64,000 nt of DNA from Marinactinospora thermotolerans DSM 45154. Lineage in GTDB: Bacteria > Actinomycetota > Actinomycetes > Streptosporangiales > Streptosporangiaceae. The stretch covers positions 1 to 64,000 of the forward strand of contig NZ_FUWS01000009.1 of NCBI RefSeq assembly GCF_900167435.1, read 5' to 3'. Position 1 is the stretch's first letter. Each line of letters begins with the position of its first letter. Position numbers and translations under genes: made by a program. The notes under the pieces were generated by a model, which was not told the DNA's origin, made no database searches, and was given only the letters and a program-made list of their open reading frames with translations. Of this stretch, positions 1 to 14,639 are shown piece by piece.

Positions 1-6
1 GTCCGG

Positions 7-222
7 GTGAACGGGCGTCACCTTCCCATCGCGCAGACACCCGCCGTGGGGTGGCCGGAGTTGTTGACCACGATCGAGGTCGCCGATCTGTGCCGGGTGG
101 CCCCCAGCACCGTCGGCCGATGGCTACAAGAAGGACGGTTGCGCGGACAGCGGACGTTGGGGGGTCATTGGCGGATTCCCGCCGACCAGATCCGCGCACT
201 CCTGGAAGGAGACCAGGGATGA
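7..222 (+). CDS. BldC-like small helix-turn-helix regulator
   Basis: Small DNA-binding protein of the BldC / excisionase-like MerR fold. Residues about 20-68 hold a helix-turn-helix (TTIEVADLCRVAPSTVGRW) followed by a wing, RTLGGHWRIP, very close to the RTLGGHRRY wing of actinobacterial BldC. At 71 residues it has the usual length of this group. GTG at 7 is the first possible start, but the frame is open to the window edge, so the true start may lie upstream; GTG at 46 is an alternative. It overlaps the next gene by 4 bases (ATGA), so the two are probably co-translated. Inference: it could regulate the RiPP-like cluster that follows. Confidence 0.8.
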   Translation: MNGRHLPIAQTPAVGWPELLTTIEVADLCRVAPSTVGRWLQEGRLRGQRTLGGHWRIPADQIRALLEGDQG

Positions 223-545
223 GGCGGCCCTGCCTTCCCGGCCACGCCGTCGCGCGTGATCTGTCCCGCCGAAGCGGCGTGCTGGTGTGGCACGGGGAAA
301 CCTCACGCGGCTATCTCGCTCTGGTCGGTCATGAACTGCTCATCGCGGCCACTCCCGAGGAGATGTGGATGAGGCTCGCCGCGCGCGGTCTCATCCCGAC
401 ACGGGAGGAATCTTCCCCGCGTTCCATGGTTCTGCCCGGGCGCGATCACCTGGCCGGCGCCGACACGACCAACACCACCTGGACCCAGGTCAGAGCGGTC
501 AGACCAGCCGGCCCGGTCTCGTGGGGGCGTCCCGCCTCCGCATAG
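219..545 (+). CDS. Hypothetical protein, 108 aa
   Basis: I do not recognise this family. The ATG at 219 overlaps the TGA of the BldC-like gene (ATGA), which fixes the start; longer readings of the same frame run back inside that gene and are unlikely. Visible features are a compact central part (VLVWHGETSRGYLALVGHEL, then TPEEMWMRLAARGLIP) that could form a small beta-alpha domain, and a charged C-terminus without membrane segments. Translational coupling to the regulator suggests a shared function, perhaps an adaptor or co-regulator. No catalytic motif is visible. Confidence 0.6.
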   Translation: MRRPCLPGHAVARDLSRRSGVLVWHGETSRGYLALVGHELLIAATPEEMWMRLAARGLIPTREESSPRSMVLPGRDHLAGADTTNTTWTQVRAVRPAGPVSWGRPASA

Positions 546-804: not shown

Positions 805-906
805 ATGGAACGCACCGACTCCGAGACATGCGGCATCCGCAACGGACAGGACATCGACCACAACGGTGATGCGTGCACATGCTGCAAGCGCCAGGGAACG
901 CAGTGA
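805..906 (+). CDS. Candidate small Cys-containing peptide, 33 aa
   Basis: A short frame starting ATG at 805 with a GGAG ribosome-binding site at 794-797 (7-base spacing). The 33-residue product is hydrophilic. It has four cysteines, one at residue 9 and three near the C-terminus (ACTCCKR), and two Asn-Gly pairs (RNGQ, HNGD). Third codon positions are about 78 percent G/C, compatible with coding here. It lies between the regulator pair and the 40-residue peptide ORF of the methyltransferase operon. It may be a second precursor-like peptide or simply a chance ORF; nothing else supports it. Confidence 0.35.
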   Translation: MERTDSETCGIRNGQDIDHNGDACTCCKRQGTQ

Positions 907-1135
907 CCTGCCTCCCGCGCCGTGTGCTGATCTTGTCCGCCTCAGACCAGCAGCCCCAGAACGCAACGAACCCCCTCACCGGGCAGAGGCAAGGGAGTGG
1001 CGTTCTTCCCGATGGTCCGTGTTCGTAGAGTCACCGACGTGCCGCATTCGGTCACCCTGTTCTCGTTTCCGAGGTTCCAAGGCCGGGGACCGGTGAACAC
1101 GTCCGGTCGTTCCCCCTGGCCCCGGAGGTGCCGCA

Positions 1136-1258
1136 GTGAGCAAGCACGACGACCCGTCCCGCTGGGATGGCCAGAAGGACAAGCCGATTCCTCCGCCGAC
1201 CCCCGACGGCGGAGGAAGTAGCGGCGGGAAGCACGAGAGGGACGAAAACGACAAGTGA
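1136..1258 (+). CDS. Putative imiditide-type RiPP precursor peptide, 40 aa
   Basis: A 40-residue ORF from GTG at 1136 with a strong ribosome-binding site GGAGGT at 1123-1128. Its TGA overlaps the GTG of the methyltransferase gene (GTGA at 1255-1258), so the two are translationally coupled. The product is extremely hydrophilic: charged ends (MSKHDDPSRW, GGKHERDENDK), a central Pro run (KPIPPPTP) and two Asp-Gly pairs (WDGQ, PDGGG). Asp-Gly is the preferred site for aspartimide formation. In the imiditide family, as I recall it, a stand-alone PIMT homologue converts an Asp of such a short precursor into an aspartimide. No leader/core boundary or other tailoring gene is visible. Confidence 0.6.
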   Translation: MSKHDDPSRWDGQKDKPIPPPTPDGGGSSGGKHERDENDK

Positions 1259-2379
1259 GTCCTGATGAGCTTCAGGCCCGCTTGGCCCGGAAGATTCCCC
1301 CGGCGTGGCGGGCCGCGTTCATGGCTGTCCCCCGGCACCTGTTCATCCCGGACACGGTCTGGGTTCGTGAGGAAGGCCGTCCCGTCCCGCTGCGCAGAGC
1401 CGACTCACCGGAGCGGTGGTTGGAGGCTTGCTACAGCGACGAGCCCATCGCTGTGCAGCTCGACGACGGCGATGGCAGTGGGCGCGGCTACGTGACGTCG
1501 TCAGCGTCCATGCCCAGCGTCGTCGCGCTCATGCTGGAAGCGGCAGAGCTGCGCTTCGGGCACCGGGTACTGGAAATCGGCACCGGGACCGGATTCAACG
1601 CCGCCCTGATCGCCTGCCGTGTGGGGATCGACAACACGACCACGGTCGAAATCGACGCCGACTTGGCCGAGCAGGCCCGCGAAGCGTTGAAGAATGCCGG
1701 ATGGCCGGTGGAGACCGTGGCCGCAGACGGGACCCAGGGGTACCCGCCGGGCGCCCCCTACGACCGGATCCTGTCCACGGCGTCGGTCTACAAGGTCCCC
1801 TACCCGTGGATCGAGCAGGCCGCCCCCGGAGGGAAGGTGGTCACCCCCTGGGGAACCGCCTTCCACAGCGGCGCCCTGCTCCGCCTGTACGTCAACGGCG
1901 ACGGGACCGCATCGGGCCACTTCGAAGGCGACACCGGATTCATGTGGGTCCGCGGCCAGCGCCCCCCGCACGGCGCGGTGGAAGACCGGGTGAGCCCCGA
2001 GCACGACTACGCCGAGACGGTCACCGATCTCCACCCCTACGAGCCCGTCGGGGACTTCTCCGCCTCATTCGCGATCGGTGCCCTGGTCCCAGGGATGACA
2101 TCGACCCTGGTCTATGACCGGGACGACCCCGCTTCCCAGCGTTACACCGTCTATCTCATGGACCCCGGGTCCGGGTCGTGGGCTTCATGGCGCATCCAGC
2201 CGGGTCCTCACGAGTACGTGGTGAAGCAGCATGGCCCTCGTAGCCTCTTCGACGAACTGGCTCGCGCCTACCAGTGGTGGAAGGAGGCGGGGAAGCCCGA
2301 CCACACCAGGTTCGGCCTCACTGTCACCCCGGACCGGCAAATCGTGTGGCTGGACGACCCGGCGCACCCGGTTGCCTAG
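1255..2379 (+). CDS. Protein-L-isoaspartate O-methyltransferase homologue, RiPP-associated type
   Basis: SAM-dependent methyltransferase of the PIMT superfamily. The N-terminal part has the substrate segment around VPRHLFIPDTVW and DDGDGSGRGYVTSSASMPSV. The SAM-binding motif I is VLEIGTGTGFNAALIA at about residues 105-120, then TVEIDADLAEQA for the acidic ribose-binding residue. At 374 residues it is far longer than housekeeping PIMT (about 210-220). It carries an extra C-terminal domain of about 150 residues, as seen in PIMTs that act on peptide natural products. Start GTG overlaps the stop of the 40-residue peptide gene. No ATP-grasp, lanthipeptide or lasso enzyme is nearby. Proposed role: aspartyl O-methylation leading to an aspartimide in the upstream peptide. 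Confidence 0.85.
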   Translation: MSPDELQARLARKIPPAWRAAFMAVPRHLFIPDTVWVREEGRPVPLRRADSPERWLEACYSDEPIAVQLDDGDGSGRGYVTSSASMPSVVALMLEAAELRFGHRVLEIGTGTGFNAALIACRVGIDNTTTVEIDADLAEQAREALKNAGWPVETVAADGTQGYPPGAPYDRILSTASVYKVPYPWIEQAAPGGKVVTPWGTAFHSGALLRLYVNGDGTASGHFEGDTGFMWVRGQRPPHGAVEDRVSPEHDYAETVTDLHPYEPVGDFSASFAIGALVPGMTSTLVYDRDDPASQRYTVYLMDPGSGSWASWRIQPGPHEYVVKQHGPRSLFDELARAYQWWKEAGKPDHTRFGLTVTPDRQIVWLDDPAHPVA

Positions 2380-2797: not shown

Positions 2798-3313
2798 GTA
2801 AGCCCCGCGCACGCGGGGATGGACCGGCAGTACTCAGCGACCACACCGCAGGTACGGCGTAAGCCCCGCGCACGCGGGGATGGACCGCCAGTGGGGGATA
2901 CCGCGCTACGCGCGGCGACGTAAGCCCCGCGCACGCGGGGATGGACCGAGCCTGCGCGTAGACCACGGCGGCGCACAGTGGTAAGCCCCGCGCACGCGGG
3001 GATGGACCGAGGTTGGAGTTGCGGCAAAACGACCTGCTCGTGTAAGCCCCGCGCACGCGGGGATGGACCGTCCGGCGCGACTATCACACGGCTTTTCGAC
3101 GTGTAAGCCCCGCGCACGCGGGGATGGACCGGAGCTGGCCGCCGCCGAGGCGGAGCAGGAGGAGTAAGCCCCGCGCACGCGGGGATGGACCGGAACAGCT
3201 CGGCATCCCCGAGCGCGGCCTGTGGTAAGCCCCGCGCACGCGGGGATGGGCCGGTCGGCAGTAGCCGGTCCTTCTCGGGGAAGGGGTGAGCCCGCGCAAG
3301 CCGGGACGAACCG
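2798..3313 (+). CRISPR. Type I-E CRISPR array 1, 9 repeats and 8 spacers
   Basis: Repeats of 29 bases begin at 2798, 2859, 2920, 2981, 3042, 3103, 3164, 3225 and 3286, an exact 61-base period giving 32-base spacers. The repeat starts GTAAGCCCCGCG and ends CGCGGGGATGGACCG, with a CCCCGC/GCGGGG stem typical of type I-E. Repeats 1-7 are identical. Repeat 8 has one change (GATGGGCCG). Repeat 9 (3286-3313) is degenerate, marking the trailer end. All eight spacers differ. No cas gene is in the window, so Cascade must be encoded elsewhere. The array ends 3 bases before the stop codon of the convergent response regulator gene. Confidence 0.97.
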
Positions 3314-14365: not shown

Positions 14366-14639
14366 GTAAGCCCCGCGCACGCGGGGATGGACCGGCGTTG
14401 AGGTGCACACCTCCCCCTCCCCCATCCGTAAGCCCCGCGCACGCGGGGATGGACCGCGACGTACATCGGACCGCCACACACGTCGCACGTAAGCCCCGCG
14501 CACGCGGGGATGGACCGCGGCCGTCAGCGGCGACGTGTTCGAGTCCGCGGTAAGCCCCGCGCAGGCGGGGATGGACCGGCTCGCCCGATGACACGCAGGC
14601 GAGTTCCTTCGTAAGCCCTGGGCGCGCGGGGGAGTCTTC
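14366..14639 (+). CRISPR. Type I-E CRISPR array 2, 5 repeats and 4 spacers
   Basis: The 29-base repeats start at 14366, 14428, 14489, 14550 and 14611. The first three equal the array 1 repeat, the fourth has one change (GCAGGCGGGG), and the fifth is degenerate (GTAAGCCCTGGGCGC). Spacers are 33, 32, 32 and 32 bases. None matches a spacer of array 1 by eye. No cas genes are nearby. Confidence 0.95.

What the first reader, a model, noticed from the sequence alone, without database searches (positions are those of the whole stretch)
1136..2379. Imiditide-like RiPP locus: 40-residue hydrophilic peptide coupled to a stand-alone PIMT homologue
Seen: a short ORF with a strong ribosome-binding site whose stop overlaps the start of a 374-residue PIMT homologue with an extra C-terminal domain. 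The peptide is charged and has two Asp-Gly pairs. Known: imiditides are RiPPs made by a PIMT alone, forming an aspartimide. Inference: this pair is a new member, with WDGQ or PDGG as candidate modification site. The short size and unusual Pro run make it different from the graspetide-, lasso- or lanthipeptide-linked PIMTs.
Basis: partly seen in the sequence, partly recalled or inferred. Interest (0 to 1): 0.85.

Follow-up and report, generated by a model that had tools for sequence, protein, structure and literature searches.

The report
Two-gene imiditide (pamtide) peptide cassette
A tiny gene for a 40-residue peptide is paired with an enzyme that very probably turns one of its aspartates into an unusual kinked bond; this is a new example of a recently described peptide class, and relatives of the pair often sit beside genes resembling regulators of bacterial development, a clue to the class's unknown job.

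Summary
A 40-residue ORF (1136-1258, good ribosome-binding site) overlaps by GTGA a 374-residue PIMT homologue (1255-2379) with an extra C-terminal domain. The pair fits the type I pamtide/imiditide class published in 2023. Of 101 related methyltransferase loci, 65 have a comparable short hydrophilic ORF just upstream, against 3 of 598 control genes. Among 21 loci with at least 55% enzyme identity, 16 keep it. Asp11 (WDGQ) followed by Gly occurs in 24 of 24 aligned precursors, Asp24 (PDGG) in 11 of 24, so Asp11 is the likely modified residue. The chemistry is inferred.

Not found in the papers I saw: these enzymes often lie beside WhiJ-type XRE-DUF5753 regulators. There are 41 DUF5753 hits within 3 kb but 2 in as much sequence at 4-8 kb; in a second family 21 versus 0. 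A similar link is published for graspetides. This locus shows no such neighbour: its contig starts 1.25 kb before the enzyme, and no DUF5753 or DUF397 was found in the 64 kb window.

Verdict: new member of a known kind, with a lead on function.

The parts
1124..1128 (+). Shine-Dalgarno GGAGG of the peptide ORF
   Evidence: read; 7-nt spacer to the GTG at 1136
1136..1258 (+). imiditide / type I pamtide precursor peptide, 40 aa
   Evidence: similar ORF at 65 of 101 related loci vs 3 of 598 controls; purifying selection
1166..1168 (+). Asp11 codon (WDGQ), most likely modified residue
   Evidence: Asp-Gly in 24 of 24 aligned precursors
1205..1207 (+). Asp24 codon (PDGG), alternative site
   Evidence: Asp in this column in 11 of 24 aligned precursors
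1229..1255 (+). charged C-terminal arm KHERDENDK, presumed enzyme-recognition arm
   Evidence: similar [KR]HE[RK] ends in many aligned precursors; role inferred from the SpaA and NmaA experiments described in PMC10787088 and PMC13001092
1255..1258 (+). GTGA start-stop overlap (translational coupling, inferred)
   Evidence: read
1255..2379 (+). PIMT homologue (PAMT), 374 aa, presumed Asp O-methyltransferase
   Evidence: PF01135 and TIGR04188; best fold match 1DL5
1573..1593 (+). SAM-binding motif EIGTGTG (residues 107-113)
   Evidence: E107, G109, T110, T112 and G113 invariant in 7 aligned enzymes
2011..2376 (+). [quoted passage not shown]
   Evidence: predicted structure
2116..2127 (+). acidic loop DRDD (residues 288-291), candidate counterpart of the NmaM DEDGD loop
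   Evidence: alignment and loop position; role inferred
2278..2298 (+). WKEAGKP = WXXXGXP motif (residues 342-348)
   Evidence: motif present in 90 of 101 homologues
7..222 (+). small HTH_17 / BldC-like or excisionase-type DNA-binding protein, part of a module also found near another imiditide pair of this genome
   Evidence: link to the cassette uncertain

Best explanation
This is a two-gene imiditide (type I pamtide) cassette. The 40-residue precursor and the enzyme are made from coupled reading frames. The enzyme, a PIMT homologue with the RiPP-type C-terminal domain, binds the linear peptide through its conserved charged ends (MxKH[DE][DE]... and ...[KR]HERD) and transfers a methyl group from SAM to the side chain of Asp11. 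The backbone NH of Gly12 then displaces methanol to give an aspartimide, which slowly opens to a mixture of isoaspartate and aspartate. No protease, transporter or other RiPP enzyme was recognised close beside it, so the product may stay inside the cell. Shown here: gene structure, conservation, enzyme family and domain, invariant Asp-Gly, paired divergence of peptide and enzyme. Inferred from characterised relatives (NmaA/NmaM, SpaA/SpaM): the reaction, its order and the use of the peptide ends. Inferred only: Asp11 as the site in this peptide, and an intracellular role.
For: Enzyme: PF01135 (105.1 bits); TIGR04188 E 1.5e-95 but below that family's cut-off, so close to yet outside the graspetide-linked subfamily; WXXXGXP at residue 342; AlphaFold model (mean pLDDT 76, pTM 0.76) whose best PDB match is 1DL5, the T. 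maritima PIMT with a C-terminal domain (E 1.3e-16, 379 alignment columns; TM 0.54, rmsd 7.7, so domain placement differs); [quoted passage not shown] Peptide: fixed-rule ORF in 65 of 101 loci vs 3 of 598 controls; in a second family 30 of 40 loci; dN/dS 0.05-0.27 in 9 of 10 pairs; Asp11-Gly12 in 24 of 24; peptide and enzyme similarity matrices correlate (Mantel rho 0.43, n=64, 0 of 1000 shuffles as high). Context: ten proteins scanned between 3316 and 16322 of the window carry no RiPP-enzyme domain. Graspetide ATP-grasp genes occur in only 4 of 101 stretches and 0 of 40 in the second family. Class definition read in PMC13001092 and PMC10787088.
Against: No biochemistry. 5 of 21 near loci lack an intact precursor: no ORF (L046, L065), frameshifted (L047), truncated (L056), degenerate with the Asp-Gly lost (L062), so the pair is not indispensable. 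One near locus (L056) has a graspetide ATP-grasp gene 1.7 kb upstream, with a methyltransferase of its own between. The review calls imiditides strongly positively charged; this peptide is net -2, the mean of 64 precursors is -0.3, and precursor charge does not track enzyme C-domain charge (rho -0.11, p 0.37). Some more distant precursors have Asp-Gly only in the PDG position (L127, L128), so Asp24 is not excluded. The 1.25 kb upstream limit leaves a hidden class enzyme formally possible.
Confidence: 0.82

Rival explanations
1. Same cassette, but the modified residue is Asp24 (PDGG), or both Asp-Gly pairs are modified.
For: PDGG is a favourable aspartimide sequence (general chemistry, recalled); distant precursors such as L127 and L128 have an Asp-Gly only in this region.
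Against: Asp in this column in only 11 of 24 aligned precursors, against 24 of 24 for Asp11; several clade members (L058, L061, L063) lack any Asp-Gly there.
Confidence: 0.15
2. The enzyme is an ordinary isoaspartate repair PIMT and the short ORF is a translated leader that only controls its translation.
For: PIMT catalytic fold; GTGA overlap allows coupling.
Against: Extra C-terminal domain with WXXXGXP; below the cut-offs of all four repair-PIMT models it hit in NCBIfam; peptide kept at the amino-acid level with dN/dS well below 1 and an invariant Asp-Gly.
Confidence: 0.04
3. The peptide is the precursor of another RiPP class (such as a graspetide) whose main enzyme lies beyond the contig start; the PIMT is only the tailoring step.
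For: The enzyme's best NCBIfam hit is the ATP-grasp-system methyltransferase TIGR04188; only about 1.1 kb upstream of the peptide is visible; one of 21 near loci (L056) has an ATP-grasp maturase (TIGR04187) 1.7 kb upstream.
Against: TIGR04188 score 320.6 is below the cut-off of 380; the peptide has only five Ser/Thr and no long leader; ATP-grasp genes in 4 of 101 stretches (L056, L089, L097, L145) and 0 of 40, and in L056 and L097 another methyltransferase follows the ATP-grasp gene. Other RiPP enzymes (LanB/C, lasso, YcaO) were not searched by profile in the relatives.
Confidence: 0.05
4. The pair is one component of a WhiJ/BldB-type regulatory module: the modified peptide acts inside the cell on the neighbouring XRE-DUF5753 / DUF397 regulator (or is its output) rather than being a secreted natural product. 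Compatible with the best explanation; it concerns function.
For: DUF5753 hits around 101 enzyme loci: 41 within 3 kb in about 589 kb of sequence, 5 at 3-4 kb, 2 at 4-8 kb in about 588 kb; background 88 matches in three whole genomes of about 20 Mb. Second family: 21 within 3 kb, 6 at 3-4 kb, 0 at 4-8 kb; 15 of 40 loci within 3 kb. All four placements and orientations occur, suggesting repeated association. Published for graspetide groups 11 and 13 too (PMC13097080 passages).
Against: This locus shows no DUF5753 or DUF397 in the window; the nearest DUF5753 listed on the contig starts at 99773. 69 of 101 loci have none within 3 kb. In the second family DUF397 and HATPase genes are not clearly clustered at the enzyme (5 of 13 and 6 of 13 hits within 3 kb). 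Simple transcriptional control of the cassette, or shared variable islands, would give the same neighbourhood.
Confidence: 0.25

Closest known systems
Imiditides / type I pamtides (NmaA-NmaM of Nonomuraea maritima; SpaA-SpaM of Streptomyces sparsogenes)
   Same: Two-gene layout; short Gly/Pro/Asp/Lys-rich precursor of about 40-45 aa; PIMT homologue with extra C-terminal domain and WXXXGXP; charged termini; conserved Asp (features read in PMC13001092 and PMC10787088; tested).
   Different: Net charge -2 rather than strongly positive; conserved Asp is followed by Gly (His in NmaA). NmaA and SpaA letters were not available here, so no direct alignment.
Group 13 graspetides (graspimiditides: fuscimiditide, amycolimiditide) and their TIGR04188 methyltransferases
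   Same: Homologous enzyme; Asp-Gly modification site; published co-occurrence with DUF397/DUF5753 genes (PMC13097080, passages).
   Different: Need an ATP-grasp enzyme and a cross-linked peptide; none found in the proteins scanned here; enzyme scores below the TIGR04188 cut-off.
Cysimiditides / type II pamtides
   Same: PIMT homologue plus short precursor; also present in a relative (L102) and, with an in-frame stop, in this genome (L087).
   Different: Precursor with two CXXCXGXG zinc motifs; the window peptide has no cysteine.
Thermotoga maritima PIMT (PDB 1DL5) and repair PIMTs
   Same: Catalytic fold; 1DL5 also has the C-terminal domain.
   Different: Repair enzymes act on isoAsp; no dedicated peptide gene is known for them (recalled).
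WhiJ-BldB-AbaA / Scr1-Scr2 (XRE-DUF5753 + DUF397) modules
   Same: Frequent neighbours of relatives of this cassette.
   Different: Not seen at this locus; no functional link demonstrated.

Membership tests
Imiditide / type I pamtide | PIMT homologue (PAMT) with C-terminal extension over 100 aa | tested here: met
Imiditide / type I pamtide | WXXXGXP motif near the C-terminus | tested here: met
   WKEAGKP at residues 342-348
Imiditide / type I pamtide | adjacent short precursor rich in Gly, Pro, Asp, Lys with a highly conserved Asp near Gly/Pro | tested here: met
   40 aa, G 15, P 15, D 17.5, K 12.5%; Asp11-Gly in 24 of 24
Imiditide / type I pamtide | no primary modifying enzyme of another RiPP class in the cluster | tested here: inconclusive
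   none in the ten window proteins scanned between 3316 and 16322; only about 1.1 kb upstream of the peptide is sequenced; in relatives only ATP-grasp was searched by profile (4 of 101 and 0 of 40 stretches)
Imiditide / type I pamtide | charged residues conserved at N- and C-termini | tested here: met
   the C-terminal arm is missing or different in some clade members (L058, L060, L061, L063)
Imiditide / type I pamtide | strong positive charge (review's description) | tested here: not met
   net -2; mean -0.3 over 64 precursors; a general remark in the review, not a defining criterion
Imiditide / type I pamtide | enzyme converts Asp of the precursor to aspartimide/isoAsp | not testable with these tools
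   needs expression and mass spectrometry
Group 13 graspetide (TIGR04188 methyltransferase) | methyltransferase above the TIGR04188 cut-off, with ATP-grasp enzyme | tested here: not met
   320.6 bits vs 380; no ATP-grasp among the ten window proteins scanned
FxLD lanthipeptide methyltransferase (TIGR04364) | score above cut-off | tested here: not met
   141.1 bits vs 320
Repair PIMT | score above an equivalog cut-off | tested here: not met
   best is NF010549, 113.4 bits vs 282
Cysimiditide / type II pamtide | CXXCXGXG...CXXCXGXG precursor | tested here: not met
   no Cys in the peptide
WhiJ/BldB-type regulatory module | XRE-DUF5753 and/or DUF397 gene beside the cassette | tested here: not met
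   none in the 64 kb window; upstream beyond the contig start not visible

The most novel reading that the evidence does not exclude
Stand-alone imiditide cassettes such as this one are effector parts of WhiJ/BldB-type developmental regulatory modules: the aspartimide or isoAsp peptide is an intracellular ligand or partner that switches an XRE-DUF5753/DUF397 regulator, so the class is a post-translationally modified signalling peptide system rather than a family of secreted antibiotics.
Probability: 0.2. Interest if true: 0.78.

Novelty: new member of a known kind. Interest (0 to 1): 0.42.

Why it matters
The 2026 review (PMC13001092) says that connecting aspartimidylated peptides to a biological function is the bigger open challenge. 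The locus adds a conserved subfamily (MGKHDD...WDGQ...KHERDD) in Nocardiopsis and its relatives with a sharp prediction of the modified residue. The neighbourhood statistics turn the open question 'what are these peptides for' into a test: does the modified peptide act on the adjoining WhiJ-type regulator?

Tried and rejected
Tried: (1) Charge complementarity between precursor and enzyme C-domain: no correlation (rho -0.11, p 0.37; C-terminal ten residues rho 0.04). (2) DUF397 ORF replacing the precursor directly upstream of the enzyme: seemed so for L033 and L038, but that script had not flipped minus-strand loci, in the right orientation on the larger stretches of the same places, removed both. 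Only L056/L027 is real, a DUF397 ORF ending next to a leftover precursor C-terminus. (3) A first XRE cluster (36 of 61 loci) mixed DUF5753 proteins with other XRE proteins; replaced by a DUF5753-only profile (32 of 101 loci within 3 kb), and six of its hits checked in Pfam, all six DUF5753. (4) Defence reading: only a methyltransferase-region match to MAD2 (64.3 bits, residues 87-197), not followed. (5) Downstream stretch 2380-2480: folds no better than shuffles (z 0.84). (6) CRISPR arrays beside the enzyme: 7 within 650 bp over 101 loci in the first family (three of the seven in this genome), none detected in 40 loci of the second; left unexplained. One repeat flagged at L065 (1,959 bp away) did not look like CRISPR.

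Sampling limits: the 101 loci are the window plus 100 fetched in rough score order from the list; at least three rows in that range (G150:C7:363212, G075:C1:5210576, G037:C25:666) were not fetched, by oversight, and six of the 100 are other places in the window's own genome. The second-family set is 40 of the 65 rows listed; one row with an internal stop was skipped. The 24-row precursor alignment is 16 loci at 55% identity or more plus 8 near relatives chosen by eye for similar ends. The DUF5753 profile was seeded from hits in the first 61 loci at any distance; E-value limits differed between (1e-8; 1e-6). The whole-genome background was measured in three genomes of the first family only. One of the three control ORFs that passed (MGKHSDPDKPQDQ...) itself resembles a precursor.

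Full report
The observation. The 40-codon ORF (1136-1258) has GGAGG seven bases before its GTG start and ends in a GTGA overlap with the 374-codon ORF 1255-2379. The larger protein matches PF01135 and, more strongly, TIGR04188, the methyltransferase of ATP-grasp peptide systems (320.6 bits, cut-off 380). It falls below the cut-offs of the four repair-PIMT models it hit and of the FxLD lanthipeptide enzyme.

Is the small ORF real? I gathered the window plus 100 loci from genomes of the same family by similarity to the enzyme. With one fixed rule (26-55 aa, ending within 60 nt of the estimated enzyme start, SD match, at least 82% hydrophilic residues, at least 15% D+E+K), 65 of 101 loci have such an ORF against 3 of 598 other genes in the stretches of the first 61 loci; one of those three resembles a true precursor. 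In a second family 30 of 40 loci pass. Among the 21 loci with at least 55% enzyme identity, 16 pass; the other five have no ORF (L046, L065), a frameshift (L047), a truncated remnant (L056) or a degenerate version without Asp-Gly (L062). Among five close loci dN/dS is 0.05-0.27 in 9 of 10 pairs, the tenth being saturated. Peptide and enzyme similarities rise and fall together (Mantel rho 0.43, n=64, 0 of 1000 shuffles as high).

Which residue? In an alignment of 16 clade members and 8 near relatives chosen by eye, Asp11 followed by Gly is present in 24 of 24 rows; Asp24 in 11 of 24. The first Asp-Gly (WDGQ) is therefore the likely site. More distant precursors show several layouts, some with the only Asp-Gly in a PDG context (L127, L128), so the second is not excluded.

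The enzyme. [quoted passage not shown] the first seven elements match what Lee et al. describe for PAMTs. The best PDB match is 1DL5, the T. maritima PIMT that also carries this domain (379 alignment columns, E 1.3e-16; TM 0.54 and rmsd 7.7, so the relative placement of domains is not matched). WXXXGXP is present (WKEAGKP, residues 342-348) and in 90 of 101 homologues; W342, G346 and P348 are invariant in seven aligned enzymes. An acidic loop DRDD (residues 288-291) sits between two strands of the domain and could correspond to the DEDGD loop of NmaM that the review says matters for modification; that correspondence is inference.

Comparison with the known class. I read the text of Zhu and Link 2026 (PMC13001092, parts 1-3 of 5) and Lee et al. 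2023 (PMC10787088, parts 1-4 of 5). They describe imiditides / type I pamtides as two-gene clusters of a short Gly/Pro/Asp/Lys-rich precursor and a PIMT homologue with the C-terminal domain. The window pair meets these sequence features. It differs in net charge (-2) from the review's description of strongly positive molecules; over 64 precursors the mean is -0.3 and charge does not track the enzyme. The JACS 2023 imiditide paper was not among the listed papers of my searches (nothing of it seen), and supplements could not be opened, so this very peptide may already be on the list of Lee et al. (1,539 clusters).

Other RiPP enzymes nearby. Ten proteins scanned between 3316 and 16322 of the window have no RiPP-enzyme domain. 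In relatives, an ATP-grasp maturase (TIGR04187) lies in 4 of 101 stretches (L056, L089, L097, L145) and 0 of 40 in the second family. L089 and L145 are graspetide loci, where it directly precedes the enzyme; in L056 and L097 another methyltransferase stands after it. L056 is one of the 21 near loci and has lost most of its precursor. Lanthipeptide, lasso and azole enzymes were not searched by profile in the relatives.

Neighbourhood. Genes recurring near the enzyme in relatives include XRE-DUF5753 (PF19054), DUF397 (PF04149), HATPase_c_2 and DUF6879 proteins; the first three are the makings of WhiJ-BldB-AbaA loci (passages of PMC10294661, PMC4255298 and PMC10364602). With a DUF5753-only profile, 32 of 101 loci have one within 3 kb: 41 hits in about 589 kb of sequence within 3 kb, 5 at 3-4 kb, 2 hits in about 588 kb between 4 and 8 kb. 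Whole-genome background is 88 matches in three genomes of about 20 Mb. In the second family 15 of 40 loci have one within 3 kb, with 21 hits within 3 kb, 6 at 3-4 kb and none at 4-8 kb. DUF397 follows in the first family (30 of 101 loci within 3 kb) but weakly in the second (4 of 40), and HATPase genes are not clearly clustered there. Loci passing the precursor rule with a DUF5753 within 3 kb: 24 of 65; not passing: 8 of 36.

Is that known? The main texts of the two imiditide papers do not contain the words DUF397, XRE or helix-turn-helix. For graspetides the link has been noted: groups 11 and 13 'may co-occur' with DUF397 and DUF5753 genes (PMC13097080, passages), and HTH-DUF5753 genes are listed among ATP-grasp neighbours (PMC8939145, passages). 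Of the four listed papers with 'imiditide' (five found), the two with 'pamtide' and the three with 'DUF5753', none is in both groups; searches listed nothing that joins them by title or abstract start, and most of those papers were not opened.

This locus. The contig starts at window position 1, so only 1.25 kb upstream of the enzyme is visible. No DUF5753 or DUF397 was found in the 64 kb; the nearest DUF5753 listed on this contig starts at 99773. Window 1-337 is 98.5% identical to the last 337 bases of another contig of the same genome (C22), where an HTH_17 gene and the start of the next ORF follow a second imiditide pair (precursor MGGHEKPDSQ...) with an XRE-like gene between (HTH_31 20.6 bits, below its cut-off of 27). 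So two imiditide pairs of this genome share a small DNA-binding-protein module, but a link to WhiJ-type regulators at this site is not shown. The enzyme has eight matches in the genome, counting itself.

Conclusion. The chemistry is inferred from characterised relatives. The neighbourhood result is the part most worth following.

Noticed in passing
window 2798-3253 and 14366-14578: Two short CRISPR arrays with the same 29-nt repeat GTAAGCCCCGCGCACGCGGGGATGGACCG (61-62 nt period); the genome carries many scattered arrays. Arrays lie within 650 bp of the imiditide-type enzyme in 7 of 101 loci (WIN, L069, L086, L088, L129, L133, L144; three of them in this genome) but only 2 lie at 4-8 kb; none detected in 40 loci of a second family. 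Unexplained.
   Followed up: partly
window 1-337 and L086 (own contig C22) 11313-11649: 98.5% identical repeat at the two contig ends, holding an HTH_17/BldC-like gene and the start of the next ORF; probably the reason for the assembly break.
   Followed up: partly
L087 (own genome, contig C34): Cysimiditide-like precursor upstream of a PIMT homologue with an in-frame stop between its two Cys motifs, with DUF5753, DUF6879 and HATPase genes nearby.
   Followed up: no
L056 / L027: Precursor reduced to its C-terminal GGGKHERDDK with a DUF397 ORF ending just before it, suggesting recombination between a DUF397 module and the precursor slot; a graspetide ATP-grasp gene with its own methyltransferase lies upstream.
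   Followed up: partly
L062: Degenerate precursor in which the Asp-Gly has become Gly-Gly, in the same gene context as intact L055.
   Followed up: no
L102: Apparent type II pamtide precursor (MGKHAKKVDCSMCGGSGE...CDPCDGTGKV) sharing the MGKH start of type I precursors.
   Followed up: no
window 805-906: 33-aa ORF with four Cys (MERTDSETCGIRNGQDIDHNGDACTCCKRQGTQ), no Pfam or NCBIfam match up to E 1.
   Followed up: no
many loci, e.g. L048-L064: Precursors across subfamilies begin alike (41 of 65 start MGKH, MGRH or MGSH), a shared N-terminal signature that may be an enzyme-docking motif.
   Followed up: partly
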